Part shown: piece by piece, positions 15,050 to 53,520 of the stretch | How positions within the stretch are numbered: the first letter of the stretch is position 1 | How the letters are laid out: the number at the start of each line of letters is the position of its first letter | Virus record (IMG/VR): IMGVR_UViG_3300020204_004241 | Location: 1-64,000 of that record | Reading direction: 5' to 3' (one strand) | From: a virus | DNA: 64,000 bases | The notes under the pieces: generated by a model | Told to the model about the DNA's origin: nothing | Seen by the model: the letters and a program-made list of their open reading frames with translations, nothing else | Databases searched by the model: none | Position numbers and translations under genes: made by a program

Positions 15050-15088
15050 TATTTCCTCCATTTATGCGCCACCCCTGTTGGGCGGCTA

Positions 15089-19770: not shown

Positions 19771-21066
19771 TCAGGACTCGAAGTCGACCTTCACGAACGC
19801 CTCGGGCCGCTTGACAGCGAGACCCAGACGCTGCTCGGCCAGAATGACGATGGCATTCCGGACGAAGAAGTCGCTGTGCTGCTCGCTGATGCGGATGCTG
19901 GCCTGCTCGCGGTCGTACAACTGCGCGCCACTTCCGAACGCGCCGACGAGGGCGGTTCCTTCAGTGATGGCAGGTGTGTCGACTACGGGGAGACGCCACA
20001 ACCGGGGCTCGCTGCCCATGGCAACCGAGATCGCCACGAGGTACTGGCCGTTGTCGTCCTTCGCGAGTTCGATGCGCTCCCAGTCGTTGGGGTGGAGAAC
20101 CACACCAGTGGGCTCGTAGTAGGCGAGGAACGACAGGGTGGCCGCACGACGGATCGAGTCGGCGTAGTTGTCGCTTGCTTCACCCTCGGACTTGTCGAAG
20201 GTCTGAATGCCGGCGGTCTGGAGAATACCGGTGAGGTTTTCGCCCAGGCCGTTGCCGTTCAGAATCTGCTCATCTTCCTGGAGACGCAGACCGTAGAGCA
20301 ACTCGTTGTCGATGATCGAGCGCAACTGTGGCTCGTCGGCAAGTACGTTGCGGTGGGCCGCTTCCCAGTGAGCCAGGGTCCGGATGGGAGCCTGCTGACC
20401 GGTGAAGGTGAATCCCGACTGGGGCTTCGCAGCGAAGGCGCTGTTGCCCGAGTTGCGCTCAGCGACGCTGGAGGCAGCGTTGGTGAAGCCGGTCATCGAG
20501 AAGTACTCGATTACCGCCGCAGTGGTGGTGCGGGCGGGGAACAGGTCGCGAACGCGACGGGTACGCATCGGGGGAACGATGATCGGGTCACGCTGGATGG
20601 TGCCGAACGAGCCGGGGGTGCCGGAGGGCAGGGCCGAGTAAACGTCCTTGCGTCCCAACATACCAGCAACGTCAGCCCTCTGAAGCATGAAGGGGCTGGG
20701 CATGTTGGCGCCATTACGGCCACCGTTCAGGGCCTTGAACTCAGCGGACTCGATGAACAGGTCACCGAGGCTCTTGCCGAGGGCTCCCGAAACCACAGTG
20801 AGGCCGGCGGCGGCAGCCGAAGCAACGCTGTCCGAGGCGGGCGACATGCCCCACTCGTCAGCGGCCTTCATGGCCTCCATGGCCTCGATGAGGCTCTTGA
20901 TTTCCTTGATGTCGGCCATGTTCCGGTCGAACGCGGACTTCTGCTCCGGGCTGACAACGACAGTGCCGTTCTCAATGCGGAAGGAGTCAGCGATCTCCTT
21001 GTTGTTGGCCATCTTTGCCCGGAGCGCACTCTGGAGTTCGCGCAGGCGGCTTTCGTCGAATGACAT
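19771..21066 (-). CDS. Major capsid protein (HK97 fold)
   Basis: A 431-residue protein. The first 110 residues are helical and charged (SRLRELQSALRAKMANNKEI, KEIKSLIEAMEAMKAADEWG), like the N-terminal scaffolding (delta) domain removed by the prohead protease. Then comes the HK97 core: IVPPMRTRRVRDLFPARTTT, WEAAHRNVLADEPQLRSIID, EQILNGNGLGENLTGIL, GVVLHPNDWERIELAKDDNG, PVVDTPAI, and LAEQRLGLAVKRPEAFVKVDF. The start has AGGAG about eight bases upstream. Being last in the minus-strand operon and directly before a terminator suits high expression. Confidence 0.95.
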   Translation of the reverse strand: MSFDESRLRELQSALRAKMANNKEIADSFRIENGTVVVSPEQKSAFDRNMADIKEIKSLIEAMEAMKAADEWGMSPASDSVASAAAAGLTVVSGALGKSLGDLFIESAEFKALNGGRNGANMPSPFMLQRADVAGMLGRKDVYSALPSGTPGSFGTIQRDPIIVPPMRTRRVRDLFPARTTTAAVIEYFSMTGFTNAASSVAERNSGNSAFAAKPQSGFTFTGQQAPIRTLAHWEAAHRNVLADEPQLRSIIDNELLYGLRLQEDEQILNGNGLGENLTGILQTAGIQTFDKSEGEASDNYADSIRRAATLSFLAYYEPTGVVLHPNDWERIELAKDDNGQYLVAISVAMGSEPRLWRLPVVDTPAITEGTALVGAFGSGAQLYDREQASIRISEQHSDFFVRNAIVILAEQRLGLAVKRPEAFVKVDFES

Positions 21067-21710: not shown

Positions 21711-24700
21711 TTAAACCTTTTCGACAATCGGGATCGGGCCCTTAAATAGCGGCCGGCCACGACTGTCCTTCATGACGCTTAGGATCATTTGGATTCTGTC
21801 CTGTACCGACATTTTGGACATCTTAGTGATGTCCGTGTCCACACCACGGGCCTTGAGGAACTCAACAATTCCCCCACCCCAATTTCCGAATTCGGCCTTT
21901 CCATATGTAGCGGTGCGCAGGTAGCCCAACATTTCATGACGGTCATCAAGCGAAAACTCTGACCGACCTGACGAAATAGCATCTGCTAATTCTCTTGACG
22001 CCGCCAGGGCTTCTGTCTTGTTGCCTGGCAGCCATTCACGTCGCGCCAGTTCCCACAGAACGCTTTGCATTGCTCGGGGATGCTGGGTGAAGTCCTCTCC
22101 AGTCAACTGCTTCCACTCTTCAGCAACATTCATGATTGCCGCCGAAACTAGTCCATATCCTCGGCCGTGACCGAGACTTTCAAGACTATTGAATAGAACG
22201 TCGGTTTCGTTGAATGCCCCGTCATTACGTCTGGTTTTTTGTGATATCGCCGGCAGGGCGAAACCGGCAACAGCCATCCATGTGTCGTTGGTTATGTCCC
22301 TAAAATAGGAGTCCATTGGATTGTTGAGGTTATTGTAGAACGACCTGACCTTGCTCTCGTCGCCAAGCAAATTAGAAATCATTGACGACATGAATGCCGC
22401 ATGCTCGGGTGAATCAACATCACCAGCAAGGGCGGCCAGTCGATCTCCGTCCCGCAGCATTTGAATAGCCTTGATGTCATTCACCAAGTATGCGCCAGCA
22501 GCCTTTTTCTTTCCTCTAATCGGATTGGCTTTGCCGGTTGCAGGGTCTGGGTTGAGGTCCAACTCCATCAATGGTCCTTCGCTACCATCAATGTACTTCA
22601 TACCATTTACTGATGCGTGTGCCCTATGAGCAACTGCAACCTCAAAGTTTGACATACCCTGAATTCGCTTGCCAGTAAATTGCTGTGCCAATTGATCTGC
22701 GTCAAGGCCGGCAATAGACCGGAAGAATTCCATGTCATTTTCTAGTGACTTAAGTTGGTACTTAAGGGCTGCGATAGTTCCCTCGCGACGCTTCTGCAAT
22801 GCCTTGGAACCCTGGTTGCGCTGCTTACCTAATTTTTCAAGGCGGCGCCGTAGTTCATTAGCGGCTGCGCTGCTGCTGTTAGTCACCTGATTCCAGTTTT
22901 TGCCGCCGCCCGATGCGCGAGCCTTCATGATTCCTTGGGCCATCGCCTTGGCGACCTCATCGCTAACCTCAAAATCTGGGTCAGCAATCATCTTGGCCAT
23001 ATGCTCCCCAAGCACAACATTCGAGTCCCATGGCAGTTGGGGAGAGATTGTTGCCATTGCGGCCGCCACCAGACTTGGATGAATATCTGTTTCTGCGGCA
23101 ATTGACCCAATGTATTCATTGGCTACTGGGTACCAATGCTTGGCGCGTGCGCGGAACTCCTTGTCGGCTGGCGAGTCATACTGAGCCAGAAGCCGCAACA
23201 TGTTGTCTTTGATGTAGTCATTGATCTGCATTACCGCATCATCAATTTGCTTCAACTGATCGGCGGAATAGTCCTTATCACCGGCCTTTAGGATTGGCAC
23301 CGGCTCAACGTGACGAAGGCCAGGCACGCCTCCGATCATTGCATTAACCATCGCTGCTTTTTGTCCTGGCGTGTAGTTGCGTCCTCCAACTTTATCCTGG
23401 CCGGCAAGGCGTGATACCTGTCCGCTGGGATCAGTCTTTCGTGTGCGGCGCACACGGATGTCCGTAGTCGGCCGTGATGGTGAGTAGGTGCTGCCCGCTT
23501 GCTCAGCGCCGGTATCAATAAAAGCCCCATTCATATCACGATCAGCGAGACGATCCATGTCAAGTACTGACGCCACGCCGCGACCTCGGCCGATATTCGT
23601 GACGGAGTCAAGGGACTGCTCGGACTTGTCGTAAACATCCGCAATATCGAAGGTCACAGTACCGGTAGCATCATCATATACGGCATTGATTACTGTGCCG
23701 ATCGAGCCACTCTTCACTGATGTGATTTCATCAATGTTGTCAGAAAGCCAACGGAACACACCTTCTTCGCCGTCCAGGGTTAGTGCGTCGTTCTCATCAA
23801 AGATGTCATCCGCATCAAATGTGACAGCCACGTTTCGCGGGACCGCATAGGTGTTGTCAAGTCCGGCTCCCATAATTTGGATAGACCGCATACTTGACTC
23901 AAGGTCGTCAATTTCCTGACGAAGTTTAAGGAGTTTTGCGGTCTGAAGTTTAGACCAAACTGACTGACCCTTTGCGTTGGTTAGTGCCAGGATTTGGTCG
24001 AGTTCATCAGTTGTTACTGACGACAGGTCACGATCTCCCAGGCGAGACGAAAGCGCTTTCCGCGATGCCGTATCAAACTTTTTAATTGCTTCAAGTCTGT
24101 CGGCAGTGCGGGTCCGCGGATTGATTTTGCGGAAGACATCCTTCCGGTATCCGATTGAACTCCTGCCACCCTCGGTGAGCCGGCTGGCCACCACTCCCTG
24201 CCGGGCGATTTGTGCCGCCTGAGCATTCGTAATCCGGCGAGTTTCAGGGATGGCGTCGAAAGCATCTTGCGAAACCCGCTGAGCAATTACACGAACAGCA
24301 CCGGTCGGGTCATTGCATCCTTCAAGTTTCCAGTTCGTGAACTGCCCTCCGTTGATTGTTGTTGGAGGGCAACGAAGCATTCCATCTTCGTCAACAAGGG
24401 CTCCACCTCGTTTGGCGATTTCCTGACTGATGGTTCGGAGTTTTGCGCCGCCCCTACGCTTGGCTGCCTTGAACTCCACCAGATGCTGGTCAAAAGACTT
24501 AGTTGCCTCAGACCAGTATTCACCGAAGCCTTTTAAATTATCGACCACTCCAGGCATCATCACCCGGTGGATGAGGGACTTCTCTCGCTTCTTCCACGGA
24601 TGACCTTCCGGGAGTAGATCGTTGTCGGTGACATAACTGGGGTTACTGGGCTGCCCATTTGACAGAATCTGAAGGAAGGCATTTACTCGCCCCATCGCCC

Positions 24701-26411
24701 ACTGGTTGCGTGGCATTCCAGACTTCTGGGAGCGCGAAGACGAACCTCCGCCACGACGGTAAACAGACTTGAGGGCCCTGAGGTTGACGTACGACCAGTT
24801 CGGGTTGCCCGCCTTTTGCATGCGCTCGTTGTGCAACTTGACCTTGTCACTGAGCGAGCGCAGGACTGCTTCATTCAGTTCTACTGAAATGGCATCAGAA
24901 GTAGGTAAGGCGTTCTTCTTGCGATTCAACTTGCTGACAGCAATGGCTACGCGGCGCACAAAGTTCTTGTCGCGCTCGGCGTTACGCCGGCGAGCCAATG
25001 GACTAGAGCCCATCCGCAGGCGGTAGTCGGATTCATTAGTGCATGGCATCCAGGCTTCTCCACCATCGTCTGAGCGATAACGGCGAATTCCAATGCAGCC
25101 GAGTTGGCGCGACCGAACGCGGGCCGAATCTGGCGACGTGAACACATCTGGGTCAGTCTTGCGGATTCGGCGCTCAGCCTTTTCTTCGACTGGCTTTTCC
25201 TCAGTTATCGGGCCACCGACAACCCATGCCCGGCAGGTGCGCTTCGCGGCACACTTGAAGTCGAAGGCTTCGCAGTAGCCAAGTTCGCCCACGGCATCAA
25301 TGGCATCCCACTCATCGGTACGCTCACCACCGGTGACGCCTTGCTCGATGCAGTCCTTCATCTTGTCTGTGACAATGAACAGTGCGCAGTTCCCGCACCG
25401 CTGCTTCTTGGCGGTAGCAACATCAACATCCCACTCATCAGCAAGTTTTGACCAATAGGCGGTGTTCTTTTCATTCGGATTCAGTGGGCCGTAAGACGCA
25501 CTGTCGATCGCCTTTTTGCGGTTGCGCAGGTTGACGGCAATGTCTTTGGTGGCTGTCGGGCAGGCAGACTCAGCCTTTTCGTTTTGCTCGATCCAGTCGA
25601 TAAAGTCCGACAACTGCATCTCGGTGAGGTTTTCTACGAAATCCTCGTACTCACCGTCGTCGGCCTTGCCAGAGCGGTACTTTCCGCCACGCTTTTTGTA
25701 TTCGCGGACCAGCCAGGCGTTTGCGTAGGCAGATGGGTAGACATCAAACTTTCGTTTCGCCTCCTCCTTGACCCGGGCATATAGTTCCGGGTTAGTGGGG
25801 ATGGCGGCCTTCTCCTCAAGGGCAGATTCGTCGTCCTTCTTTTTGGTTGGAACATAGATCGGCTTTTTGTCAACCCGCGTCTCGGTCGACTCTGCTCGAC
25901 GCTTTCTGGTGACCGCGTCACGAATTTCTTCTGCCGTCATTGAACGCGCTCGTGAAGCCGGCACACACTTCGGGTACTTACCCTTGTCGGCATCGTCCCG
26001 CCCGCATGGCTCGAATCCGCCGCCCTTCTTCGGGCGCGAGATGTCTACCCAGCGTTCCTTGAACCATTGAGTGAGCGACTTTTGCAAAGCCGCCGAGACA
26101 AGACCTCCATCTGCGAGTGTGTCAATGCCAAGGATGGGCCTTTCGCTAAGTTGCTCCCAGCCAATTGGCTTCTTTCCGCGACGCTTCCGCTTACGAATTT
26201 CAGCCGACTTACCCTGCGAGCACGGAAGACACTCATCGTCTTTTTCATCTAGGGAATTGATTTGGTCGAGGATGCGCGTTAGTTCTTCGTGTGATTCACA
26301 GGGCATCCATGCGCCATCGACTTCATGGGCACCGCTGCATCCAAGCCGGCGTGACATGCGCATAGCCTGAGCCCTGTTTGGGCGCAGAACATCATCGTCT
26401 TCGTTGTTCAT
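21711..26411 (-). CDS. Giant multidomain virion-associated protein (1566 residues)
   Basis: Domains visible in order: a Cys motif LGCSGAHEVDGAWMPCESH (about 24-42), repeated later as LGCIGIRRYRSDDGGEAWMPC (about 435-455). A segment VDISRPKKGGGFEPCGRDDA with KYPKCVPASRARSMT and then YPSAYANAWLVREYKKRGGKY is a pattern I associate with viral domains of unknown function. A Cys-rich patch RCGNCALF...GYCEAFDFKCAAKRTC may bind metal. The shared CPPTTINGGQFT...GC motif lies near 690-710. The C-terminal 500 residues are helical (HPSLVAAAMATISPQLPWDS, KVRSFYNNLNNPMDSY) with an enzyme-like look but no motif I can name. It starts in the stop of the 98-residue gene (ATGA). Its place between protease and capsid suggests packaging in the head. 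Confidence 0.7.
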   Translation of the reverse strand: MNNEDDDVLRPNRAQAMRMSRRLGCSGAHEVDGAWMPCESHEELTRILDQINSLDEKDDECLPCSQGKSAEIRKRKRRGKKPIGWEQLSERPILGIDTLADGGLVSAALQKSLTQWFKERWVDISRPKKGGGFEPCGRDDADKGKYPKCVPASRARSMTAEEIRDAVTRKRRAESTETRVDKKPIYVPTKKKDDESALEEKAAIPTNPELYARVKEEAKRKFDVYPSAYANAWLVREYKKRGGKYRSGKADDGEYEDFVENLTEMQLSDFIDWIEQNEKAESACPTATKDIAVNLRNRKKAIDSASYGPLNPNEKNTAYWSKLADEWDVDVATAKKQRCGNCALFIVTDKMKDCIEQGVTGGERTDEWDAIDAVGELGYCEAFDFKCAAKRTCRAWVVGGPITEEKPVEEKAERRIRKTDPDVFTSPDSARVRSRQLGCIGIRRYRSDDGGEAWMPCTNESDYRLRMGSSPLARRRNAERDKNFVRRVAIAVSKLNRKKNALPTSDAISVELNEAVLRSLSDKVKLHNERMQKAGNPNWSYVNLRALKSVYRRGGGSSSRSQKSGMPRNQWAMGRVNAFLQILSNGQPSNPSYVTDNDLLPEGHPWKKREKSLIHRVMMPGVVDNLKGFGEYWSEATKSFDQHLVEFKAAKRRGGAKLRTISQEIAKRGGALVDEDGMLRCPPTTINGGQFTNWKLEGCNDPTGAVRVIAQRVSQDAFDAIPETRRITNAQAAQIARQGVVASRLTEGGRSSIGYRKDVFRKINPRTRTADRLEAIKKFDTASRKALSSRLGDRDLSSVTTDELDQILALTNAKGQSVWSKLQTAKLLKLRQEIDDLESSMRSIQIMGAGLDNTYAVPRNVAVTFDADDIFDENDALTLDGEEGVFRWLSDNIDEITSVKSGSIGTVINAVYDDATGTVTFDIADVYDKSEQSLDSVTNIGRGRGVASVLDMDRLADRDMNGAFIDTGAEQAGSTYSPSRPTTDIRVRRTRKTDPSGQVSRLAGQDKVGGRNYTPGQKAAMVNAMIGGVPGLRHVEPVPILKAGDKDYSADQLKQIDDAVMQINDYIKDNMLRLLAQYDSPADKEFRARAKHWYPVANEYIGSIAAETDIHPSLVAAAMATISPQLPWDSNVVLGEHMAKMIADPDFEVSDEVAKAMAQGIMKARASGGGKNWNQVTNSSSAAANELRRRLEKLGKQRNQGSKALQKRREGTIAALKYQLKSLENDMEFFRSIAGLDADQLAQQFTGKRIQGMSNFEVAVAHRAHASVNGMKYIDGSEGPLMELDLNPDPATGKANPIRGKKKAAGAYLVNDIKAIQMLRDGDRLAALAGDVDSPEHAAFMSSMISNLLGDESKVRSFYNNLNNPMDSYFRDITNDTWMAVAGFALPAISQKTRRNDGAFNETDVLFNSLESLGHGRGYGLVSAAIMNVAEEWKQLTGEDFTQHPRAMQSVLWELARREWLPGNKTEALAASRELADAISSGRSEFSLDDRHEMLGYLRTATYGKAEFGNWGGGIVEFLKARGVDTDITKMSKMSVQDRIQMILSVMKDSRGRPLFKGPIPIVEKV

Positions 26412-26704
26412 TTGCTGCCCTTACGCTTGCGCGGTGCCTTTGTTTTCCCTGGATCAGTATTGTCCTCTGGGATACCCAGAACTCCATCGTCCTTCAGTTC
26501 TTGATACATCTCCCGGAACTTCTCACGATTTTTTGGCTGCGAGCAGTACCAGATTGTTGACCAGTAAATGGCATCCCGTTCAGCGCCAGTTTCATCGCTG
26601 GCCAGGGTTTCTGCGTATTGCACAATTCGGCTGCGTTCTTCCCCGGAATCGACGTATTTGTAAAAGGCGTTTCGGATGTTTTGCAGTTGCTTCTCATCAA
26701 ACAT
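26408..26704 (-). CDS. Small helical protein of the giant-protein module
   Basis: A 98-residue protein with helices IRNAFYKYVDSGEERSRIVQYAETL and REKFREMYQELKDDG and a basic tail (KTKAPRKRKGSK). The helical part resembles, position by position, the 86-residue gene 10626-10886 that ends the HExxH module. It overlaps both neighbours by a few bases, so all are co-translated. Function unknown. Confidence 0.65.
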   Translation of the reverse strand: MFDEKQLQNIRNAFYKYVDSGEERSRIVQYAETLASDETGAERDAIYWSTIWYCSQPKNREKFREMYQELKDDGVLGIPEDNTDPGKTKAPRKRKGSK

Positions 26705-27008
26705 TTTTGAGCCACCTGTTTGTCATTCTCTCAACATCCTCAGCCCTTGGGTCGGCGCTATTTGGGTCCCATAGTGAAGGCGCGAGATTCTCATTAATAG
26801 CAGGCTTCCAGTATGGGTTCTGGGAGATGGCGATATGTAGTGGAAGCGTCAAGCGCTTTTTGACGCGATTCTTTTTTGCCCCAGGGCTGGGGTCATACCG
26901 ATAAATGAATCCCATTGCCGGCCCATTGAGGTAGCCAGTCATGTATAACTCTTCATATTGACCAAGCGAATTAGGGTCAGTTCGGGCGATCAGAACTTCT
27001 TTTCTCAC
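26697..27008 (-). CDS. Small hypothetical protein after the 2603-residue gene
   Basis: A 103-residue product whose start overlaps the giant's stop by 4 bases. It includes a Tyr-rich segment (YEELYMTGYLNGPAMGFIYRYD), a basic stretch (KKNRVKKRL) and a C-terminal helix. It occupies the position that the small AGN-motif proteins have in the HExxH modules but does not clearly share their motif. Not recognised. Confidence 0.6.
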   Translation of the reverse strand: MRKEVLIARTDPNSLGQYEELYMTGYLNGPAMGFIYRYDPSPGAKKNRVKKRLTLPLHIAISQNPYWKPAINENLAPSLWDPNSADPRAEDVERMTNRWLKNV

Positions 27009-30000
27009 GGCTGGGCCTCGGTTTGCATTCTAGCGATGATCGCATCTACGCTATCAACAATTCGCTGGGCCTGAGCGCGACGATCTTCGGTGCTTTCGAC
27101 ATTTAGCATGTCCTGAATGTAGGAGTATAGCCTACCAAGAGAGTAGTCATTATCCCATTCTTTTTCAGGGTCCCCGCCGGTCTCGGCATTCATTGTGTCT
27201 CCGAAGAATTCCTTGACCGCACGGGCTACGGCTGAGCCGGCCAATAGTTCCGTGTCGTAGGTATTCGGATCAAGGGACGGGAGCATCTCGAATACTCGGT
27301 CCAGGGCAGGACTCTCGTATTCGTTGTCAACATTGAATGGCTTGCGGTAGTTAGCAAAGTTGCTCTCAACCTCTTCCAATCCGTCACGATCAAGTGTCAC
27401 GGCCGGACGAACTGGTCCGATCCGTGGTGTGCCGGCTTCTTCCTGTCGCGCTCTACCACCGACGCGACTACGTCGGCGTGCCGCGCTTCGTGCTGCACGT
27501 TCTGCTCGCCCTGCCTCGAACTCAGCAATTGCTTCCTCGTTCCGCTGCTGCTCTTCTTCGCTAACAACCGCCTGAGACCCGATCCCGATTTCCTCCTGCC
27601 GCTGGTTCAAATCATCTTCGTCCCCAGTTGCAGGTCCCTCAACCTGTGCTTCGCGACGGTTTCGCGGACGAGGAGAGCGCGGTGTCGCGGGCCTTCGTCG
27701 GGTTCGTGGTGCTGGGGTTTCTTCTTCGTCGGCGTCTAGGTTTTCTGATTCAGCAAGAATCGCATCATCGTTCGGATCATCTGGGTCTGGATTGCTTCGT
27801 CTACGTGCTCGCTCCTCTGCCTGTGCGGCCCTTGTTCGTGCAGCCTCAGCAGCCCTATTCATTTCTGCACTGTTTGGCGCAAGTTCATCAACACGGTTAC
27901 GGGCAGTCGGATAGGCGAGCAATCGATCGGGTGGGATCGGCAAGCCAGTTGGAGTGAGTGTTTCTGACTGCTGTGTACCAAACACTGTAGACGCAAATCC
28001 TTCTGACGAGCCATACTTGCCGTCATAAATGCGCTTCAGAGCGCTGTCAATTTCCTGCTGCTCTAATTCAATTCCAATAACGCGCACTCTGGCTTGCTCA
28101 ATGTCAGCAGCGTCGGTGTCGCCAAGTTCATCATCGCTACTAAGGACGGTGCCCCGGTTCTCGCTAAGATCATCAACTTCTCGTCGTGCCATTTCAAGTC
28201 GTGCATCATTGGCGGTTCGTCGGTCACGAAGAGCGGCCTCGGCCTCAACAAGAAACGCAGCGGCCTCTGCTTCCGTGCCGGGGTTTTCCGGATCGATATA
28301 CCATTCGCCTGGGTCACGGGTGAATCGTTGCCCAGTTGGGCCAACTGCTTCTTCCCCGCCCACGGCGCGGCGAGGCCTGTAGTTGGCATTTATTCTAGGA
28401 GTACCACTGGGGCCAGAGTACTTTTGGGCGGGGGCCTGTGGAACTTCATCTATAGCCTCAGACCCAAGAGGTGCTTCGGGCGCTTCGCCGCGCTCTGTTG
28501 CGAGGGCGTCCGCAAGACCCGTGACGTTTTCGGCAGTTGCTACCGCGTCTGCCGCTGCGTCAACTTCTTCAACAACCTCGGGCGTTGTATCGCCAATTAC
28601 TTCTGGGGTTGCCTCTTCGGCTGATGGGGCCTGTTCTGGCTCACCGACAATACGGAGCGGAATGCCACGATTCTCCAGGATTCTAGTAACTTCATCGCGA
28701 TAACTCTGCGGATGGAGTTCCCATGTCATGCGGTCAACTTCAGCAGCCTCAATGTCGCTTGGCTCAAGTGGACTCTCTGGGATAAATGTATTTCTAAAGT
28801 CACCATCTGGGAATTGTCGCGAATCGCGGAAGCCTTGCCAGTTGACTGTTTCCGGTAGGAAGTATCCGTTTTGCTGCAATGGAAAGATAGTCCCACGTGT
28901 GTTGCCAAAGTTCATCACCGGCTGTCCCGACACGTCGTTCTTTAGCACAAGGCGAATGCCACGATTTTCTGTTCCGTCTGGCGTAATTCTGGCCAACTGC
29001 GTCTCTACCGAGCCGGCGATGAACGAGTTTGACAATAGCGGGCCATTTAAACCGGCTCCCCCGAAGTTGGGTGCCCTCAGTTGGTCTAAGTTGCGAATGT
29101 CAACCGTTGGCCGGCCACGCAATGACTGCAAAGCCTCAGCAACGTCGTTGGGACCAAGACCAGAGAAGTTGCGAAGATTAAGTTTAAATTCATAAAGAAC
29201 TTCAGCAACAGTATCTCCAACTCGCTCAGCATCCATAACTGCCATCAGGCCTTCACCAGTTAGGTTTGGGGGGGATGCCAGTCTGATGTCTGCTTCAACC
29301 GCTTCAGAAATTCTGCGGGCCAGGTTCGTCCCAGTAAGTTCAAAAGGAAGATCGGTGTTACTTAAATCGACGCGGAGACTTTGCAAAAGTTCCTCTAGCG
29401 CCGGGGTTTGGCTAGAGCGCGTCAGCGCATAGAAGGGCTCAAGATTATCGTCAACGCGGCCGGCATCTCGCATGTTCGGAGGTAGTGATCGAAGATCAGA
29501 CACGATGCCATTGGCCAAGTCAATCGCGCTTGAGTTTTCAAGATTATCTGCGAAGCCACGATCTGGGTCAACAGATGGAAGTGCATTGAGTGCCTGTGTT
29601 GCCCCCTGCGCCCGTCGTGATATTGGCTTAGCGCGAACAGCCAGAGGCTTGCCGAGAACCTCTTCAAGGTCCATTCTTCCACTAAACGAGAGTTTCTTGA
29701 ACCAGCGCTTGATTTCGGCCTCTCGCCGCCCGCGTTCAACCGGGTCAGAAATTGCTGCTGCGTCATCGATCGCCATAATTGCTTCGATGTGCGACGGGGT
29801 CGAGGGGTCAATTGGCTGATTTTCGTAAGCGGAGTTGCCTGTCGCTGTATCTAATTCATCAACGATCCACTGCCAAGCATTCGCTTGTTCCTGGTTGCGA
29901 ATTAGGGATGGGCGTCCTCTTTGCCAATTTATGAGTTCGTCAGTCATCGCAATTTTAAGTTCAGTTACCTGGTATATTCTCGTAACCCTAAATCCGAGGC

Positions 30001-33000
30001 GAGGCCAAACGTATGGGCCGTCTGATGTTGCGCCCACTCCAACCTTGTTATGACCAGCCAATTGTAAGTGGCGTAAGGCATGAGTATTAAATACCGTGGC
30101 GACGCCGGCGCCTTTATAGGTTTCGCCCTGGTCTTCCAAGTACATGTTAGCGTGTTCAATATAACTCGGTTGACCATCAACATCACGGGTAATGTAACGA
30201 GAGAACCTTCCGAGTGTTCCTTCTTCCCCGGTTGTCAGATTTCTAAATCTTACTACTCCGGAACAGTTGGAATTGTAAACACTAACGCCGTCCGTGAAGA
30301 CTTCGATCTCTTCGATTCGCGGGCTGCCGTCGCTATTGAATAGTTTTTCGCCAGTTGATCGATCTCGCCTGTGAACTTTCATCTTCACTGGCGGCATTGT
30401 GTAGGCCAACTCGCGAAGTTCTCTGTCGCGGATGTCTATTTGATCATCGATGTCACCACGCTCTAGGTCGTCGGTCGCCCCGCGACGAGCATCAACAAGC
30501 CCACGAATTTCTGCTACAAGTTGCGCTGCCCTGGAGTCTGGGTCTTCCCACGGAAGAGGTTCGGTTTCGCCCAATCCGTATGCTTGACGCAACTGCGTAT
30601 CTGTTTGCTTACGACGGCGCAGGTGTGTTTCTTCTACAAGTGAGCGGATTCTTTCCTCAACATTATCGGAAAACGGCTGAACGTCAAATTGTGAAGGGCT
30701 CGTAATTGTGCGTTCGCCGCTGTCGTGCAGGGATGGTGTGTTGCCAGAAAATTCGGGATTATCCAAATCCCGTACCTGGGTGGCGTCCATCAAACCAGAA
30801 GCCGGCGCCGAGTCGCGCAGGCCACGCCCCTCTTCCGTCGCCCTAATTAGCGCAAGGCGCTGGGCAACCCACTCTCGGGCCTCGAAGTCGTGCATGTCGG
30901 CAACCCTGCTGCGTCCCTGGCTAGTCGGACCAACATTGGGCGAGGACACTTCAACATCACGGATGAATCCATCAGGGTCGTCGATGAGTGCTCGGACAGC
31001 GGCATTGACGTTTTTGTCCAGTTGACGTGCGGTGTTCGCTAGTTCGATAGCCAGTCCATCGTCATACCCAGTTTCGGACATGCGCTGGAAAATTGGCGCA
31101 TAAAACTGATCAAAGAAGTTGCTCTCTAGTTGCCCTTCTGTTGGATCATAGTAATACAGCGCATTGCTGTCAAGAACACCTTCTGGCACGCGCGGACGTC
31201 CGTCAAAGTATGTGCTGTCGAAAATGTTGCGTAGGCGCCTAGCAACCAGGTCCTTCACGTCATCGGGGGTGAAGTCTCCTGATTGGGCCAAATTGAGAAG
31301 TGCATTAGCATCATCCCTAAGCATTTCAATCTGGCCCGGGAACAGGCTTGACATGTCCTCGTAGGTGCGGTCAATCTCGCTTAGTTCGCGGCGGGCAAAA
31401 TCTTCCAATTGATCTGCGTCAAGGTCTGGGCCGACTTCAATAAGGGCCTGCACAAAGACCATCCGCTGCTGGGTAAGCGTTCTGTCCCCAAACCCTGGGT
31501 GCTCTGGGTTTTCGAACGTAAGCCACGGATGCCTGTTTAGGACGTCAGTTCTTACAGCATCTCTAATAAACTCTTGAGCGCTAGTATCGGTTTCATTTGG
31601 CGTAATATCATCTACTTCAAAACGACCTTCGAAGAATGAGGGTTCGAGCCTACGAGCAGTGTAGTAATTCGCCAGATCGACATCGTCTTTCACTTGGCCT
31701 CTAACCAGCGCATCCAGTTTGTCCATCGATGTTTCTTCTGAGATTTCCCCCCTGTCGAATGCCTCAGCCAGTGCCTCGGCACGCTGCATTCTGTACTCTC
31801 GGCGCTCTGCATGAACTTCGCTAATATTCCGGTCACCTGGTTCAAACTGGCGCCACGCCCGTGACGATGCAACATAATCCTTGTCTTCTGGATCGCCTTC
31901 CAGAGCCAGGAATCCCAATGGCCTTGTCTGCAGTTCGGCAGTTTTTTCGTCGACACTGTCGGCAAATTCCCGTCGGCCGAAAAGGCCGAACTGGCCTTCG
32001 CGACGAATGCGATCAACAACAACTCCGACAGCCTCTGCTGCCGCATCTTCATCAGGAGTTCCTACTGCCTTGTCGGCTCGCCGCACGGCGGCATCAAATT
32101 CTTTTTCAAGTTGCCGGCGCAGGTCTGTTCCGACAATTCCCTCTTCTTGAACAATTTCTTCGGCAACTCGAATGCGCTCGTCTGCCTCTACGCCAGCCTG
32201 AGTGGTTGGGTTGGTTACTGGCGGGCTAATATCATCCGCCTCTGGGCGCGCCGGGATGACGTCACTTGAAGTGCCATCCTCGTTATCAAGCAAGCGATCA
32301 GAAACGGTACCACGGTTTCGGAAGGTTGTATATGTTTCGCCTTCCACCGGGCGGAAACCAGATGGAATCTTTTCTTGAGGCACTGAGATGAACTCGTCGA
32401 AGTCGGCTTCATTTGCCGGCGCCTTGTATGGCCGGTTGCCGCTGTTATTGCCACCAAATCGTCCTGGAGGGAATCGTGATACGGAGCCGGTCGTACGTTC
32501 GCCCGGACCAATCGTTCGACGAGTATTGGCGTTTTCAATCATGCGAAGCCCGCGCCACGCAAGTTCACGGCGCTCCAGCGACTCATTCTCGTCTACCATG
32601 ATGTTGTACAAGTTCTCGAACATGTCGTCGAGCGTCTTGTCATCAATGACATCCCAGTTGCGGTAGCCGCCGTAGCCAAACTCATCGCGAATGCGTCGAC
32701 CGACTCGTTGCCAGCGCGGTTGGGGGAGTTCACCGCCACGTCGATAATCCCTGAGGTACTCAAGGAGTTCCCCGACAGTCATCTCTGTTTCTTCGTCCGG
32801 GAAGCCTTCCTCCCGTCCGGTTTCGTCATCACGTCTTGCGGTTCCACGTGAACGACCGAATGAACCCGGCCGCCCTCGTCCGCCAGCCTCAGTAGTGTCT
32901 CCAGGGGTCCTAGGACGCTCGGCGCCAGCCGGACTTGTTGGGGCCGGCTCATCTCCGCGACGGCGACGGCGCTTGGGCTTTGCCTCGCCCTCTGGTGCTC

Positions 33001-34816
33001 CCTCTGGCGCGGCCTCGGGAGTCGCGTCTGGTGTTGCGCGCTCCTCTGGTGCTGCTTCTTCTGTCGGCTTTGGCTTGCGTGGCTTACGCGGCTTTTTGCC
33101 AGCAGGAGTTTCTGGGCTTGCGGGTTCTGCTTCTGGTGCTTCAGTCGGCGTTGCCTCACCCTCTGGTGTGGTGTCCGCTTCTGGCACATCGATTACGTCT
33201 TCTACCGCTTCTTCTGTTTCTGCTCCGCGCTCACGCTGCTCGGTGTCAAAAACCCAGTCACGCCATGCGCGGGCAGACTGAGCGTAGTTGGGCAGGTCTT
33301 TGTCAGGTACTTCTCGTTCTGATGGAACACCCTGTTCGCGATCGAGTTCTGCTAGATCACTCTCGTAGAATTCATTGATCATTTCCCGTTCTTCGTCGGT
33401 TGTTGCAGCCTCTAGACGGCGATCACGCTCTGCCTTAAGTTCGGCACGCCTCTTGAGGATTCTTTTATTATGACGGTCGATCTCAACCATGGACTTGGCG
33501 GCAAGGATGCGCCGCGTAAAGTCTTCGTTTGGATCAAGAGCGATTCGACGCAGTTCGTCGTAAAAGTTATCTAGTTCATCGGGAGTCATCCGACTCAATG
33601 GCTTGTTGAACAAGTCGGGAAACTGCTCCCGAACTATCCGCTCCCAATCAGACCGGTTGGGGGCATATGTGGCTCCTCCTTCGGCTCCAAATACATACCA
33701 AGCCAAGCGTTCTTCGGGTGATAATCCATCGATGAACTCTTGGCGCGGACTTAGTGGGCGCGGACGCGGCTCTCTTGGGGTGCGACCACCAGGCCGAGGC
33801 GCTGGTCGTGGTGTTGGGGTTGGCGCTGGGCGAGGACGAACTGGAGTGCGTCCACCCGGACGAGGTGACGGGGTTCCTGGCGTAGGCGTGCCGGGGGTGG
33901 GCGTCGTGGGGATCGTTGGTCTTGTGCCAGGGGTTGGCGTAGGGGTGCCAGGGGTTGGGGTTGTTGGAACCGTCGGCCTCGTGCCAGGGGTTGGCGTAGG
34001 GGTGCCAGGGGTCGGCGTGGTCGGAACTGTTGGCCTTGTGCCAGGCGTTGGTGTTGGAGTACCAGGGGTTGGGGTTGTTGGAACTGTCGGCCTCGTGCCA
34101 GGGGTTGGCGTGGGCGTTGGGGTGGTGGGGACCGTAGGCCTTGTGCCGGGGGTCGGAGCGGGACCCGGTCCTGGAGTTGGCGATGCCGGAGGATTCCCTG
34201 GTGCCATCCCCGGACCTGTCGTCCCGGTAGGAATTCCCTGTTCTTCACGTGCCTGCTCGTCTTCTCGATCACCCCAGCCCCAGTCAATGCGACGGCCGAC
34301 CTCTCGCAAGCGAGAGAGGCGTTCCAGGAGTCGCTGACCACGCTCTGCTCTACGTAGTGCCCGCTCACGCCGGCGCGCCATCTGCGGGGTGTCAACACCC
34401 TCTTGAGCAAAGTCCTGAAGTCGTTCTCCGCCGCGACCGATAAGTCCGCGCAGCCCACCTCGGCCGCCGCCGATTCGAGATAGCCCTCGACCAAGGCGCG
34501 CAGCAAGTCGTCGCACGAAACCAGTCGTACAACCTTCACCAAGTCTGTTGGTGAACTGACCGGCCGCGGGCGTTTCGGGGGGACAGCGGAACTGCCCGGC
34601 CACCGAGTCCCAGACTGCTTTCTTGACACGAATCTCAAGTTCAAGAGCGCGAGCCTTGGACTCTGACTCAAAGGCCTGCGCCTTGTAGTTGACTGAGTCG
34701 CGCCATGCAGTAATCGACGAGTGATCAATTCGCTCTAGGCGTACACGTCGCGTCGGAGCGGTATTCGCTGTTTTATGCCGAATACCACTGCTCGACAACT
34801 GCTTGGTTTCAATCAT
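27005..34816 (-). CDS. Giant 2603-residue multidomain protein with Pro/Thr repeats and GNAT-like region
   Basis: The largest gene in the window (7.8 kb). Order: N-terminal helical part; shared motif FRCPPETPAAGQFT...GC (about 78-96); an Arg/Gly-rich stretch; a Pro/Thr repeat linker (about 210-350); two similar helical modules (LDNFYDELRRIALDPNEDF near 420 and LDDMFENLYNIMVDENESL near 740) and a related third near the C-terminus (LGRLYSYIQDMLNVESTED). Then come long acidic Pro/Glu/Ala linkers. A GNAT-like stretch follows around 1560-1620 (GAGVATVFNTHALRHLQLAG, YVWPRLGF). Near 1900-1950, IRLVLKNDVSG may be an enzymatic domain. It may be a packaged, ejected polyprotein-like factor; the HK97-type protease upstream could process it. 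All of this is inference. Confidence 0.7.
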   Translation of the reverse strand: MIETKQLSSSGIRHKTANTAPTRRVRLERIDHSSITAWRDSVNYKAQAFESESKARALELEIRVKKAVWDSVAGQFRCPPETPAAGQFTNRLGEGCTTGFVRRLAARLGRGLSRIGGGRGGLRGLIGRGGERLQDFAQEGVDTPQMARRRERALRRAERGQRLLERLSRLREVGRRIDWGWGDREDEQAREEQGIPTGTTGPGMAPGNPPASPTPGPGPAPTPGTRPTVPTTPTPTPTPGTRPTVPTTPTPGTPTPTPGTRPTVPTTPTPGTPTPTPGTRPTVPTTPTPGTPTPTPGTRPTIPTTPTPGTPTPGTPSPRPGGRTPVRPRPAPTPTPRPAPRPGGRTPREPRPRPLSPRQEFIDGLSPEERLAWYVFGAEGGATYAPNRSDWERIVREQFPDLFNKPLSRMTPDELDNFYDELRRIALDPNEDFTRRILAAKSMVEIDRHNKRILKRRAELKAERDRRLEAATTDEEREMINEFYESDLAELDREQGVPSEREVPDKDLPNYAQSARAWRDWVFDTEQRERGAETEEAVEDVIDVPEADTTPEGEATPTEAPEAEPASPETPAGKKPRKPRKPKPTEEAAPEERATPDATPEAAPEGAPEGEAKPKRRRRRGDEPAPTSPAGAERPRTPGDTTEAGGRGRPGSFGRSRGTARRDDETGREEGFPDEETEMTVGELLEYLRDYRRGGELPQPRWQRVGRRIRDEFGYGGYRNWDVIDDKTLDDMFENLYNIMVDENESLERRELAWRGLRMIENANTRRTIGPGERTTGSVSRFPPGRFGGNNSGNRPYKAPANEADFDEFISVPQEKIPSGFRPVEGETYTTFRNRGTVSDRLLDNEDGTSSDVIPARPEADDISPPVTNPTTQAGVEADERIRVAEEIVQEEGIVGTDLRRQLEKEFDAAVRRADKAVGTPDEDAAAEAVGVVVDRIRREGQFGLFGRREFADSVDEKTAELQTRPLGFLALEGDPEDKDYVASSRAWRQFEPGDRNISEVHAERREYRMQRAEALAEAFDRGEISEETSMDKLDALVRGQVKDDVDLANYYTARRLEPSFFEGRFEVDDITPNETDTSAQEFIRDAVRTDVLNRHPWLTFENPEHPGFGDRTLTQQRMVFVQALIEVGPDLDADQLEDFARRELSEIDRTYEDMSSLFPGQIEMLRDDANALLNLAQSGDFTPDDVKDLVARRLRNIFDSTYFDGRPRVPEGVLDSNALYYYDPTEGQLESNFFDQFYAPIFQRMSETGYDDGLAIELANTARQLDKNVNAAVRALIDDPDGFIRDVEVSSPNVGPTSQGRSRVADMHDFEAREWVAQRLALIRATEEGRGLRDSAPASGLMDATQVRDLDNPEFSGNTPSLHDSGERTITSPSQFDVQPFSDNVEERIRSLVEETHLRRRKQTDTQLRQAYGLGETEPLPWEDPDSRAAQLVAEIRGLVDARRGATDDLERGDIDDQIDIRDRELRELAYTMPPVKMKVHRRDRSTGEKLFNSDGSPRIEEIEVFTDGVSVYNSNCSGVVRFRNLTTGEEGTLGRFSRYITRDVDGQPSYIEHANMYLEDQGETYKGAGVATVFNTHALRHLQLAGHNKVGVGATSDGPYVWPRLGFRVTRIYQVTELKIAMTDELINWQRGRPSLIRNQEQANAWQWIVDELDTATGNSAYENQPIDPSTPSHIEAIMAIDDAAAISDPVERGRREAEIKRWFKKLSFSGRMDLEEVLGKPLAVRAKPISRRAQGATQALNALPSVDPDRGFADNLENSSAIDLANGIVSDLRSLPPNMRDAGRVDDNLEPFYALTRSSQTPALEELLQSLRVDLSNTDLPFELTGTNLARRISEAVEADIRLASPPNLTGEGLMAVMDAERVGDTVAEVLYEFKLNLRNFSGLGPNDVAEALQSLRGRPTVDIRNLDQLRAPNFGGAGLNGPLLSNSFIAGSVETQLARITPDGTENRGIRLVLKNDVSGQPVMNFGNTRGTIFPLQQNGYFLPETVNWQGFRDSRQFPDGDFRNTFIPESPLEPSDIEAAEVDRMTWELHPQSYRDEVTRILENRGIPLRIVGEPEQAPSAEEATPEVIGDTTPEVVEEVDAAADAVATAENVTGLADALATERGEAPEAPLGSEAIDEVPQAPAQKYSGPSGTPRINANYRPRRAVGGEEAVGPTGQRFTRDPGEWYIDPENPGTEAEAAAFLVEAEAALRDRRTANDARLEMARREVDDLSENRGTVLSSDDELGDTDAADIEQARVRVIGIELEQQEIDSALKRIYDGKYGSSEGFASTVFGTQQSETLTPTGLPIPPDRLLAYPTARNRVDELAPNSAEMNRAAEAARTRAAQAEERARRRSNPDPDDPNDDAILAESENLDADEEETPAPRTRRRPATPRSPRPRNRREAQVEGPATGDEDDLNQRQEEIGIGSQAVVSEEEQQRNEEAIAEFEAGRAERAARSAARRRSRVGGRARQEEAGTPRIGPVRPAVTLDRDGLEEVESNFANYRKPFNVDNEYESPALDRVFEMLPSLDPNTYDTELLAGSAVARAVKEFFGDTMNAETGGDPEKEWDNDYSLGRLYSYIQDMLNVESTEDRRAQAQRIVDSVDAIIARMQTEAQP
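33900..34165. repeat. 57-bp tandem repeats coding Pro/Thr linker
   Basis: About five head-to-tail copies of a 57-base unit lie within the 2603-residue gene. On the minus strand each encodes roughly PTPTPGTRPTVPTTPTPGT (19 residues), with one copy having Ile for Val and one shortened. Third-position differences between copies show the array is not newly expanded. Such linkers are extended and flexible, and the array is a likely site of length variation between relatives. Confidence 0.85.
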
Positions 34817-36897
34817 TCTGACATTCCCACAAACTCAAATAGGCGGGCCTTGGATGCTCGGAGCGTACTGAGCCGACGATTAAACACGTCCTTCATCAGT
34901 TCCATGCGCACTTGCTCTGGCTTTGTCAGTTTACCATCGACAAGGAGTCGCTTCATGTACTCCTCCCAGCGAAAATCCTCGGCTCGCTTAATTGTGTCGT
35001 TGTACATTTCGAGCAATACTTGACGCTGACGCTGGGACACATTGGTGAAAATGCCCTTGTAGGCCGCGCCATTTCTGTCATACCAGGCGCCCAGAACATC
35101 GACTCGACGGGATCGCAGTTCGTCCGCCGACAGTCCAGCGCCACCCGCCAATGAGTCGCCCAAAGAGAAGGTGCGCTTTGATTTTCCGACGCTTGCGGTG
35201 GCCAGGTTTTCTAGAGTTCGTCCACGATTGTCAAGCAAAAAGTCCGACATGGCCAAGACCATAAGGTCCTTCATATTTGCCGATTTGATCGGATCAGCAG
35301 AAATGGCGCCGTCAATAATATTGCGCGGGTCTTCGATAAACGAATCACGCATTTCGTTCTTTCCGGAACCAACGACCTTTCCGGCCTTGAGGCCGAGGAA
35401 GTTCTGAATATCCGACGACAGGCGACGGGACAAGAACTCGAAGTCATTTTTGGCTGGAGTTTTAATCCACTTATTCCCGCGCCCACCGTCATACAACGTG
35501 GTGCGATTCTTGCCTTTTGATTCCTTGTACTTCTTGGAGCCAGCAACAGCACGCGCAATAAGTTCAGGGGCAATATCAGCAAGCGAGCCACCCCCATTGA
35601 GGTGGGCGATGGCATCCTCTAGCGAGATGATTTCCTTCTCTGGGGCGGTGCTGGCCGACTGCTCAGCAACACGCTCGATCTTCCAGGGCTCGGCCCCCTC
35701 CTGCCGGCCTGGAGCATCGACGGACATGAACTTCTCATAGACCCATCGGCGCACTTGTGCAGTTTCTGCGCCACGGCTGGCGGTTATCAGATCATTGGCA
35801 TTATCTACGTCTGCGATATTCTCGCGGTAAATAAGCGAGCCGTTCGACATGTCTGCGATTTCGCGAAGTCGATCTCCTCCGTCAAATGGCTTCGGCTGAG
35901 TGCGACTAATCTTCTGGGCCCACAAGCGCCCAAGGCGTCGACGATCTCCGTTAGTCAGTTCCTTAGTTGCCTCTAGCGTAATAGTTCCTCCGCCGGGGAG
36001 GACGTTGTGTAGTGAGCGAACCTTGTTCTGCCAGATGAGCGGCGCGTGATCTGAGCCAATGTTGTTCGGGCTTGGCACTCCGGCGAAGAATGACGCGCCC
36101 TCCATGTCCAGGCTTCGTCGTACTTGCGCCAAGGACCGCGAGGTCACTGCCGGCGCCAGAATCAAGCCATCGCGGCGGGCCATAAATCGAGCATTGGGGT
36201 TTGTCTCCAGAACGGACACAATTCCGTCAAATGCACGCTTCAATTTCTTGGGGTCTGGGCCGGCGACTCGTGGAATCTGTGCCTGTCGCTGAATCTGAAT
36301 CGTCTGCGATGTGAGTGCTCCTCCGCCTAGTGCGCGCATCATTGCCTCAGACATTGGCGCGCGCAGGAACGGACGGTTCAGGTCAAGCAGTCCGCGAAGC
36401 CTTGAGTTGGGGAGTTCGAAGAGAATACGACCACAATTGGCAAATCCACTTGAAGCGAACCGCCCGCCGTTTTCGTAACCGGCAGGACAGCGTAGTTGTG
36501 CTCGGTAAGCACGTCGGGCAGCGCCAGTGATGGCACCTCCGCCGCCGATTCCTCCCAGCCCTCGGCCCAGTCGTCCGCCCCCACCGCCACCAGGGGTAAT
36601 CAGGCCGAATGCAGCAGCGCGTGGGCTCGTGTACCGAGAAAGGTTTCCAGGGGTAAGTAGCGAACCGACAGCCTGAATACGCCGACCAACAGCAGAGTCA
36701 TCCCTTAGGACGCCAGCCTTTACTTGCTGCTCTTCAAGGAGCCGCATGGTGATGATCGCCTTGTAGTTGATGACATCGCGGGTAGGCAATCCTGCCTGCT
36801 TAAACAGGTGCGGAGTTGCCTCGTGCGCGAAGATACGACGAACTACAAGCGGCTCGTTGCCGAGCACAGCGTCTTCCCGCTCCTGATCATCCCCCAT
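34813..36897 (-). CDS. 694-residue head-associated protein with possible kinase-like fold
   Basis: The N-terminal 130 residues are helical with a Gly-rich stretch (GGGGGGRLGRGLGGIGGGGAI); then the shared LRCPAGYENGGRFASSGFANC motif (about 136-156). The C-terminal half has RGNKWIKTP, FLSRRLSSDIQNFLGLKAGKVV, then LVLAMSDFLLDNRGRTLENLA and FSLGDSLAGG. The last two recall the catalytic loop (D..LDNxxR...N) and metal-binding Asp of HipA/PI3K-like kinases, though the usual DRH is GRT. It follows the zinc-ribbon protein by 12 bases with AGGAG before the start, and its stop overlaps the 2603-residue start. Function unproven. Confidence 0.65.
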   Translation of the reverse strand: MGDDQEREDAVLGNEPLVVRRIFAHEATPHLFKQAGLPTRDVINYKAIITMRLLEEQQVKAGVLRDDSAVGRRIQAVGSLLTPGNLSRYTSPRAAAFGLITPGGGGGGRLGRGLGGIGGGGAITGAARRAYRAQLRCPAGYENGGRFASSGFANCGRILFELPNSRLRGLLDLNRPFLRAPMSEAMMRALGGGALTSQTIQIQRQAQIPRVAGPDPKKLKRAFDGIVSVLETNPNARFMARRDGLILAPAVTSRSLAQVRRSLDMEGASFFAGVPSPNNIGSDHAPLIWQNKVRSLHNVLPGGGTITLEATKELTNGDRRRLGRLWAQKISRTQPKPFDGGDRLREIADMSNGSLIYRENIADVDNANDLITASRGAETAQVRRWVYEKFMSVDAPGRQEGAEPWKIERVAEQSASTAPEKEIISLEDAIAHLNGGGSLADIAPELIARAVAGSKKYKESKGKNRTTLYDGGRGNKWIKTPAKNDFEFLSRRLSSDIQNFLGLKAGKVVGSGKNEMRDSFIEDPRNIIDGAISADPIKSANMKDLMVLAMSDFLLDNRGRTLENLATASVGKSKRTFSLGDSLAGGAGLSADELRSRRVDVLGAWYDRNGAAYKGIFTNVSQRQRQVLLEMYNDTIKRAEDFRWEEYMKRLLVDGKLTKPEQVRMELMKDVFNRRLSTLRASKARLFEFVGMSE

Positions 36898-40859: not shown

Positions 40860-40894
40860 CCCCAGTAGGGGAATGTTTCAGTAATGGCATTACT
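40860..40894. promoter_or_regulatory. Two inverted repeats between portal and protease genes
   Basis: CCCC-AGTA-GGGG at 40860-40871 and AGTAAT-GGC-ATTACT at 40880-40894, the latter touching the portal stop codon, lie in the 82-base gap. Neither is followed by T-rich sequence on the minus strand, so they look like operators or mRNA-processing/stability elements rather than terminators. Confidence 0.35.
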
Positions 40895-53480: not shown

Positions 53481-53520
53481 AATAGGGCATCCCTAGCGCT
53501 GCTACTTACATAGGTTGATC

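What the first reader, a model, noticed from the sequence alone, without database searches (positions are those of the whole stretch)
21711..36897. Cassette of giant multidomain proteins between prohead protease and capsid
Three proteins of 694, 2603 and 1566 residues with small partners occupy about 15 kb where phages normally have a scaffold gene or nothing. They carry separate, partly recognisable enzymatic modules (kinase-like, GNAT-like, Cys clusters), flexible linkers and a shared Cys motif. Established knowledge: MuF-linked polyvalent proteins can be packaged in heads and injected. Inference: these are ejected early-takeover proteins, perhaps cut by the adjacent protease. This is the best candidate for an undescribed system in the window.
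Basis: partly seen in the sequence, partly recalled or inferred. Interest (0 to 1): 0.8.

Follow-up and report, generated by a model that had tools for sequence, protein, structure and literature searches.

The report
Tagged giant proteins in phage heads
A widespread but uncultured group of viruses of actinobacteria keeps 16-47 kb of huge multi-enzyme genes between two head genes, and most of these proteins start with the same short two-cysteine tag, which suggests a common address label for loading takeover and anti-defence proteins into the virus head.

Summary
Three co-directional giants (694, 2603 and 1566 aa) with 103- and 98-aa partners lie between the S78 prohead protease and the HK97-type capsid gene. 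They share a two-Cys motif. The window is an IMG/VR record with WhiB, so an actinophage.

The cassette is a clade trait. In 21 related records, 15.7-46.9 kb of giant ORFs (up to 4736 aa) sits between portal and capsid. In 12 of the 21 the prohead protease is itself the N-terminus of a giant. Relatives' giants carry known polyvalent-protein modules: ArdC-N/MPTase, zeta-like kinase, ART, sigma-70 region 4, helicase, exonuclease.

The new element is a ~90-aa N-terminal module: invariant Lys in a YKA-type motif, then RCPxGTPxANQFTDxxGxNC. It was found in 25/25 records; all 57 placeable hits lie between portal and capsid. Neighbouring cargo is replaced wholesale. It was not detected in 50,697 GenBank phages.

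The universal 694-aa protein has a HipA/CtkA/PI3K-like kinase fold without a conserved catalytic Asp: probably a pseudokinase. The 2603-aa protein has a GNAT-like domain.

Best reading: head-packaged, ejected polyvalent proteins loaded through a shared tag. Packaging, cleavage and injection are inferred, not shown. New variant of a known kind.

The parts
40894..43161 (-). portal protein fused to a C-terminal MuF domain (755 aa)
   Evidence: Phage_portal E=7e-49, Phage_Mu_F E=1e-11
38652..40811 (-). S78 prohead protease (719 aa; protease at residues 20-172; residues 395-582 are a separate gene in most relatives)
   Evidence: Peptidase_S78 E=1e-13
36910..38652 (-). 580-aa zinc-ribbon / scaffold-like head protein; its C-terminal module is part of the protease ORF in cultured phage GMA6
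   Evidence: Zn_Ribbon_1 E=1e-7; homologous to the C-terminus of the GMA6 protease ORF
34813..36897 (-). 694-aa conserved tagged protein, probable pseudokinase hub
   Evidence: found in all 21 relatives; AlphaFold and Foldseek
36388..36783 (-). tag region of the 694-aa protein (K46-A47 and RCPAGYENGGRF...NCG)
34816..35637 (-). HipA/CtkA/PI3K-like kinase fold of the 694-aa protein, catalytic Asp not conserved
27005..34816 (-). 2603-aa giant: N-terminal tag, Pro-rich repeats, GNAT-like domain, otherwise unassigned cargo
34472..34756 (-). tag of the 2603-aa giant (VNYKAQAF ... RCPPETPAAGQFTNRLGEGC)
33767..34231 (-). Pro-rich TPTPGTRPTVPTTP-type linker (approximate limits)
   Evidence: read from the translation
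29660..30217 (-). GNAT-like domain of the 2603-aa giant (residues 1534-1719), recurrent in relatives
26697..27008 (-). 103-aa partner ORF, no family
26408..26704 (-). 98-aa partner ORF with homologs at the same place in relatives
21711..26411 (-). 1566-aa giant: conserved head-module half (1-620), internal tag (625-716), cargo (750-1566)
26289..26381 (-). DUF3721 copy 1 (residues 11-41); a second copy is near residues 417-450
   Evidence: homologous block 417-610 precedes the capsid gene in relatives
25632..25799 (-). DUF5872 (residues 205-260)
25197..25565 (-). HiPIP-like Cys-rich module (residues 283-405); a separate gene downstream of the capsid gene in several relatives
24264..24539 (-). 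tag of the 1566-aa giant (LVEFKAAKR ... RCPPTTINGGQFTNWKLEGC)
22944..23186 (-). DUF7178 in the cargo half of the 1566-aa giant
   Evidence: E=2e-9
19771..21066 (-). HK97-type major capsid protein; invariant FK111[A/S/T] near the end of its N-terminal segment
   Evidence: phrog_10 E=3e-65

Best explanation
The cassette encodes head-internal, ejected polyvalent proteins. During prohead assembly the 694-aa protein and the giants are recruited inside the shell through a shared N-terminal module (YKA-type site plus a two-Cys RCPxGTxxxNQFTDxxGxNC motif). The S78 protease in the same operon probably trims them, most simply at the invariant YKA/FKA site, which resembles the FK(A/S/T) site at the scaffold-domain boundary of the capsid protein. 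The variable C-terminal parts (GNAT-like and DUF7178 here; anti-restriction ArdC/metallopeptidase, zeta-like kinase, ART, sigma factor, helicase or nuclease in relatives) enter the actinobacterial host with the DNA and act in the first minutes. The 694-aa protein, always present and a probable pseudokinase, is likely the structural hub rather than an effector. Shown: architecture, conservation, tag, cargo replacement, domain content. Inferred: packaging, cleavage, injection, activities.
For: Cassette at the same head-gene position in 21/21 related records, 15.7-46.9 kb, all co-directional. Protease fused to 1645-4736-aa giants in 12/21, with ArdC/MPTase, sigma-70 region 4, helicase and exonuclease in one such protein. 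MPTase-PolyVal in 7/25 records, every hit inside a cassette giant; 11 of 12 zeta-like kinase hits also inside. Tag profile: 25/25 whole records, 59 hits, all 57 placeable ones between portal and capsid. Paired giants of one genome share little beyond the tag region in most pairs, and two same-slot giants (2454 and 2419 aa) align over only ~278 N-terminal residues. [FYV]K[AGS] enriched in tags, 54 against 12.2 shuffled (maximum 26), and invariant at the capsid boundary site, 22/22. Portal-MuF fusion next door. Literature: PMC5512222, PMC9503650, PMC12810830.
Against: No virion proteomics is known to me for this clade. In the window itself only a GNAT-like fold (moderate support), DUF7178 and Cys-rich modules are recognisable; most of the 2603 aa is unassigned. 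About 680 kDa of encoded cassette protein per set is large for a phage whose known record is 68.7 kb, unless copy numbers are low. The tag could serve assembly or anchoring to portal or membrane rather than head loading. The cleavage site is motif-level inference only.
Confidence: 0.66

Rival explanations
1. The giants are mainly structural: an elaborate scaffold or inner-head/portal-vertex structure, with enzyme-like domains reused as folds. The tag binds capsid or portal, and nothing is injected as an effector.
For: 694 is universal and its kinase-like fold has lost the catalytic Asp. The 580-aa neighbour shares a module with the protease ORF of GMA6. Zn-ribbon, HiPIP-like and DUF3721 modules are shared head-region parts.
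Against: Cargo regions are replaced wholesale between relatives, unlike a structural core. ArdC/MPTase, ART, helicase and exonuclease domains have obvious early-infection roles.
Confidence: 0.17
2. The giants are late cytoplasmic proteins, not packaged. They help assembly, counter host defences late, or act on grazers after lysis; position in the head operon only sets timing.
For: An ART domain is present in one relative; freshwater actinophage ARTs have been proposed as weapons against grazers (PMC6802176).
Against: Fusion to the prohead protease in 12/21 relatives and one tag shared with the structural-looking 694 argue for a head location. Sigma-factor, helicase and anti-restriction domains fit early action.
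Confidence: 0.1
3. The short two-Cys motif is a metal-binding or disulfide knuckle that spread with recombining giant genes and has no addressing function.
For: Some second giants in one subclade keep the upstream part but have lost the Cys motif, so the Cys pair is dispensable there.
Against: Found only between portal and capsid in 25/25 records. Fixed order and similar spacing of the invariant Lys and the Cys pair. Both Cys invariant in 30/30 homologs of 694.
Confidence: 0.12

Closest known systems
Polyvalent proteins of phages and conjugative elements (Iyer et al. 2017, PMC5512222)
   Same: Very large multidomain proteins beside virion genes; shared modules MPTase-PolyVal, ArdC-N, ART, GNAT, zeta-like kinase; portal-MuF fusion next door
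   Different: Here several giants per phage share a dedicated N-terminal tag and a conserved pseudokinase partner, and the prohead protease itself is often fused to the giant. That paper calls ArdC-N rare in phages; it occurs here with MPTase
Phage T4 internal proteins and Alt with an N-terminal capsid targeting sequence cut by gp21 (review PMC9026906; details from general knowledge)
   Same: Proposed logic: one short N-terminal address on unrelated cargo, trimmed by the prohead protease
   Different: The tag here is longer, contains a two-Cys motif, shows no sequence relation that I know of, and goes with an S78-type protease; cleavage not shown
Phage P1 DarA/Hdf anti-restriction head proteins (PMC12810830)
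   Same: Anti-defence proteins attached inside the capsid and absent once the DNA has left
   Different: Different protein families and size; no shared tag known to me
Streptomyces phage Gilgamesh gp48 (MN234216)
   Same: 4624-aa gene between a portal-MuF fusion and the capsid gene of a cultured actinophage
   Different: No tag, no 694 homolog, no Pfam domain
HipA / CtkA / PI3K-like kinases
   Same: Fold of residues ~421-694 of the 694-aa protein
   Different: Catalytic Asp position is D in only 7 of 22 homologs and the following His/Asn are not kept
Nudix domains fused to MuF, portal or the capsid-processing peptidase (PMC9503650)
   Same: Precedent for an effector fused to the capsid protease
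   Different: Nudix domains there; 1645-4736-aa multi-enzyme proteins here

Membership tests
Polyvalent proteins | two or more unrelated activities in one large polypeptide | tested here: met
   Met in relatives: G032 4736 aa (S78 protease, sigma-70 r4, KTSC, UvrD-type helicase, RNase_T, ArdC-N, MPTase), G035 3280 aa (NUDIX, ART, DnaJ, zeta-like), G011 2281 aa (zeta-like, pentapeptide, ArdC-N, MPTase). In the window itself only weakly: GNAT-like in 2603, DUF7178 and Cys-rich modules in 1566
Polyvalent proteins | encoded among virion genes | tested here: met
   Between portal/protease and capsid in the window and 21 relatives
Polyvalent proteins | hallmark domains MPTase-PolyVal / ArdC-N | tested here: inconclusive
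   7 of 25 records over the cut-off, all inside cassette giants; absent from the window
Polyvalent proteins | packaged in the virion and injected | not testable with these tools
   needs virion proteomics and an injection assay
T4-type capsid targeting sequence system | common N-terminal segment on otherwise unrelated head-internal proteins | tested here: inconclusive
   Shared segment on unalignable cargo is met; head-internal location is inferred, not tested
T4-type capsid targeting sequence system | cleavage by the prohead protease | not testable with these tools
   Only a shared YKA/FKA-type motif with the capsid boundary site
HipA/PI3K-like kinase superfamily (694-aa protein) | fold | tested here: met
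   Foldseek against CtkA E=4e-5, probability 1.00; HipA and PI4K next
HipA/PI3K-like kinase superfamily (694-aa protein) | catalytic Asp/His/Asn loop | tested here: not met
   Position 559 is D in 7/22, G in the window; position 561 is never His; position 564 is mostly Ser
GNAT acetyltransferases (2603-aa protein) | GNAT fold and acetyl-CoA motif | tested here: inconclusive
   Foldseek top hits are acetyltransferases but best E=3.7e-3; PDB profile hits GNAT E=0.04; one homolog hits Acetyltransf_1 E=8e-4
Actinobacteriophage | whiB gene | tested here: met
   Window 1324-1530 E=4e-16; 17 of 25 virus records

The most novel reading that the evidence does not exclude
An undescribed, clade-wide cargo-loading system. 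A ~90-aa two-Cys tag addresses arbitrary giant proteins into the phage head, a universal pseudokinase acts as the docking hub, and the prohead protease (often fused to cargo) releases them, so that 16-47 kb of each genome is a swappable arsenal delivered with the DNA.
Probability: 0.42. Interest if true: 0.82.

Novelty: new variant of a known kind. Interest (0 to 1): 0.63.

Why it matters
If the tag is an address label, it makes testable how phages choose which proteins to pack into the head, a question answered in detail for few systems such as T4. It also gives a sequence handle (tag search) to find injected effectors and anti-defence proteins in uncultured actinophages, including the large unassigned cargo regions, and could be a tool for loading proteins into phage heads. 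The scale is unusual: 0.56-1.7 MDa of cassette protein encoded per genome.

Tried and rejected
Direct search for relatives of the 1566-aa protein in viral contigs by patterns found none; the capsid and portal routes worked instead. Pfam/PHROGs on the 2603 and 694 proteins: no significant family. PDB sequence search for 694: noise only. My guess that DUF7178 is an HhH-glycosylase-like domain could not be tested (no PDB hit; weak phage hits) and is not used. A tail-length or tail-fibre role was rejected: the ORFs lie between protease and capsid, and a separate 1407-aa glycine-zipper ORF at 53515-57738 is a better tape-measure candidate. A frameshift artefact or chance ORF was rejected by conservation. 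Host from MAG-linked relatives (Phycisphaerae, Gammaproteobacteria, Verrucomicrobiales) was set aside as likely binning error in favour of whiB. A first DNA pattern in the window was mis-specified and gave zero hits; it is not evidence. Zeta-toxin hits are of limited specificity: the family rings in all 14 control genomes. The first tag query against phages was a consensus I composed; it was repeated with real sequences and gave no match.
Full report
WHAT IS THERE. The window belongs to a 68.7-kb IMG/VR virus record. On the minus strand, one run of closely packed genes reads: portal-MuF fusion, S78 prohead protease, 580-aa zinc-ribbon protein, 694 aa, 2603 aa, 103 aa, 98 aa, 1566 aa, two small ORFs, major capsid protein. 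The 580-aa gene between protease and cassette was left out of the finding.

IT IS A CLADE TRAIT. Neither the 2603 nor the 694 protein has any match in 50,697 GenBank phage records. Searches of IMG/VR with portal and capsid found many related contigs. In 21 of them I could read the whole portal-to-capsid stretch. Every one is filled with co-directional giants: median span with the window 23.7 kb, range 15.7-46.9 kb, ORFs up to 4736 aa, about 0.56-1.7 MDa of encoded protein per set. The order is stable: portal; protease; zinc-ribbon protein; giant 1; a small protein homologous to residues 395-582 of the window protease (part of the protease ORF in some); the 694 homolog; giant 2; DUF3721-type protein; capsid. 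In 12 of 21 the protease domain is the N-terminus of a giant of 1645-4736 aa. The window and 16 of the 24 related virus records searched carry whiB, a taxonomically restricted actinobacterial gene used to assign actinophages (PMC6802176).

CARGO. Pfam on 20 giants of relatives found MPTase-PolyVal, ArdC-N, zeta-toxin-like kinase, pentapeptide repeats, KTSC, RNase_T, sigma-70 region 4, UvrD-type helicase, DnaJ, NUDIX, ADP-ribosyltransferase and PI3K/HipA-like domains. One 4736-aa protein joins protease, sigma region 4, helicase, exonuclease and ArdC/MPTase; its helicase is 37% identical to the stand-alone helicase of Arthrobacter phage Racecar. This is the repertoire of polyvalent proteins (PMC5512222). 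Across 25 whole records, MPTase-PolyVal occurs in 7, always inside cassette giants. Zeta-like kinase occurs in 12, 11 of them in the cassette, but that model is unspecific. The window's own cargo is less legible: a GNAT-like domain in 2603 and DUF7178 in 1566.

THE TAG. A profile of the shared Cys region hits giant 1 and the 694 homolog in the 21 relatives, hits all three giants of the window, and hits giant 2 in many; in one subclade giant 2 has lost the Cys pair but keeps the upstream part. Aligned tags keep only six invariant residues: one Lys (mostly in a [YFV]K[AG] context) and, about 33 residues later, R-C-P ... T ... C. A scan of 25 whole records gave 59 hits in 25/25 records. All 57 hits in the 24 records with both ends located lie between portal and capsid; the other two lie beside the portal at a contig end (with positions). 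Two tag patterns each reached the 120-stretch reporting limit in IMG/VR. Real tag and 694 sequences found no match in GenBank phages. Tag and cargo evolve separately: in several genomes the paired second giants share the tag region at 52-72% identity and nothing else that BLASTP can align, and two same-slot giants of 2454 and 2419 aa align only over the first ~278 residues; other pairs from close relatives do keep alignable cargo. In the 2603 protein only the tag and the GNAT-like domain have detectable relatives. In the 1566 protein residues 1-620 are conserved head-region modules, the tag is internal, and the remaining cargo is nearly unique.

POSSIBLE CLEAVAGE SITE. [FYV]K[AGS] occurs 54 times in tag segments against 12.2 expected (maximum 26 in 500 shuffles) and is 6.6 times denser than in the rest of the same proteins. 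The same kind of site is invariant in the capsid protein, FK111[A/S/T], 22/22, and nearly invariant at the protease N-terminus. The HK97 capsid protein has a 103-residue N-terminal scaffold domain (PMC10275583), so position 111 is near the expected boundary. That HK97 is cut after a Lys is my recollection, not checked. This is a lead, not proof of cleavage.

THE 694-aa PROTEIN. It is present in all 21 relatives, down to ~22-24% identity (shortened in one), with both Cys invariant in 30 aligned sequences. AlphaFold gives a disordered N-terminus, a small tag region and two folded domains (mean pLDDT 70). The C-terminal domain matches CtkA (E=4e-5, probability 1.00), HipA and PI3/PI4 kinases. Proteins of other phages named as ADP-ribosyltransferase, portal or minor capsid protein also match. 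The catalytic Asp position is D in only 7 of 22 and Gly in the window; the His and Asn that follow are not kept. I read it as a pseudokinase with a structural role.

BEST MECHANISM. Tagged giants and the 694 hub are built into the prohead, trimmed by the S78 protease, and leave the head with the DNA, delivering anti-defence and takeover activities. Shown here: anatomy, conservation, tag, cargo swapping, domain content, fusion to the protease. Inferred: head location, trimming, ejection, activity of each domain.

WHAT IS KNOWN. Polyvalent proteins encoded near virion genes and fused to MuF or portal (PMC5512222), and Nudix domains fused to the capsid-processing peptidase (PMC9503650), are described. 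P1 carries anti-restriction proteins inside its capsid (PMC12810830). Cultured or deposited actinophages have giants at the same spot (Gilgamesh gp48, 4624 aa; DSL-LC01, 3289 aa), without the tag or a 694 homolog. In the papers searched I found no description of the tag, the universal pseudokinase or the multi-enzyme protease-fused giants. I therefore file it as a new variant of a known kind.

LIMITS. All relatives are metagenomic assemblies, no completeness is given, and I know of no virion data. E-values for loci from pattern searches are relative to candidates only. Shuffling tests ignore relatedness. The GNAT call is moderate. Most cargo is unassigned.

Noticed in passing
window 1324-1530 (+): WhiB gene, pointing to an actinobacterial host
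   Followed up: yes
window 14156-15061 (-), 3500-4615 (+) and 405-1196 (+): Histone-deacetylase-like amidohydrolase, PAPS-reductase-like and phytanoyl-CoA dioxygenase-like genes, unusual auxiliary genes in a phage
   Followed up: no
window 16566-18491 (+): Class II (B12) ribonucleotide reductase of only 641 aa, matching pieces of the barrel domain; it may be a compact or partial version
   Followed up: no
window 7047-10103 (+) and 11228-14146 (-): Two more long ORFs (1018 aa with DUF3626; 972 aa with no Pfam match) outside the cassette
   Followed up: no
G015:3472-4008, G024:47210-47773, G026:30426-30572, G029:114086-114649: Giant ORFs (1216-3061 aa) with an RNase_T exonuclease domain outside the portal-capsid interval of relatives, so giants are not confined to the cassette
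   Followed up: no
L053:11781-12560, L101:14008-14481, L091:11938-12951 and others: The HiPIP-like Cys module of the 1566-aa protein (residues 279-411) is a separate conserved gene just downstream of the capsid gene, 54-79% identical
   Followed up: partly
L401:15585-17039 (Gordonia phage GMA6): The protease ORF of GMA6 ends with the module that ends the 580-aa protein here, as if the giant genes had been inserted into an ancestral protease-scaffold gene
   Followed up: partly
L042:777-2063: The 694 homolog of this record is cut short at 428 aa and lacks the kinase-like domain, while kinase-like stretches recur inside neighbouring giants of relatives
   Followed up: no
PV211011 and related Roseobacter phages: A stretch homologous to 1566 residues 492-613 lies under a feature annotated as major capsid protein
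   Followed up: no
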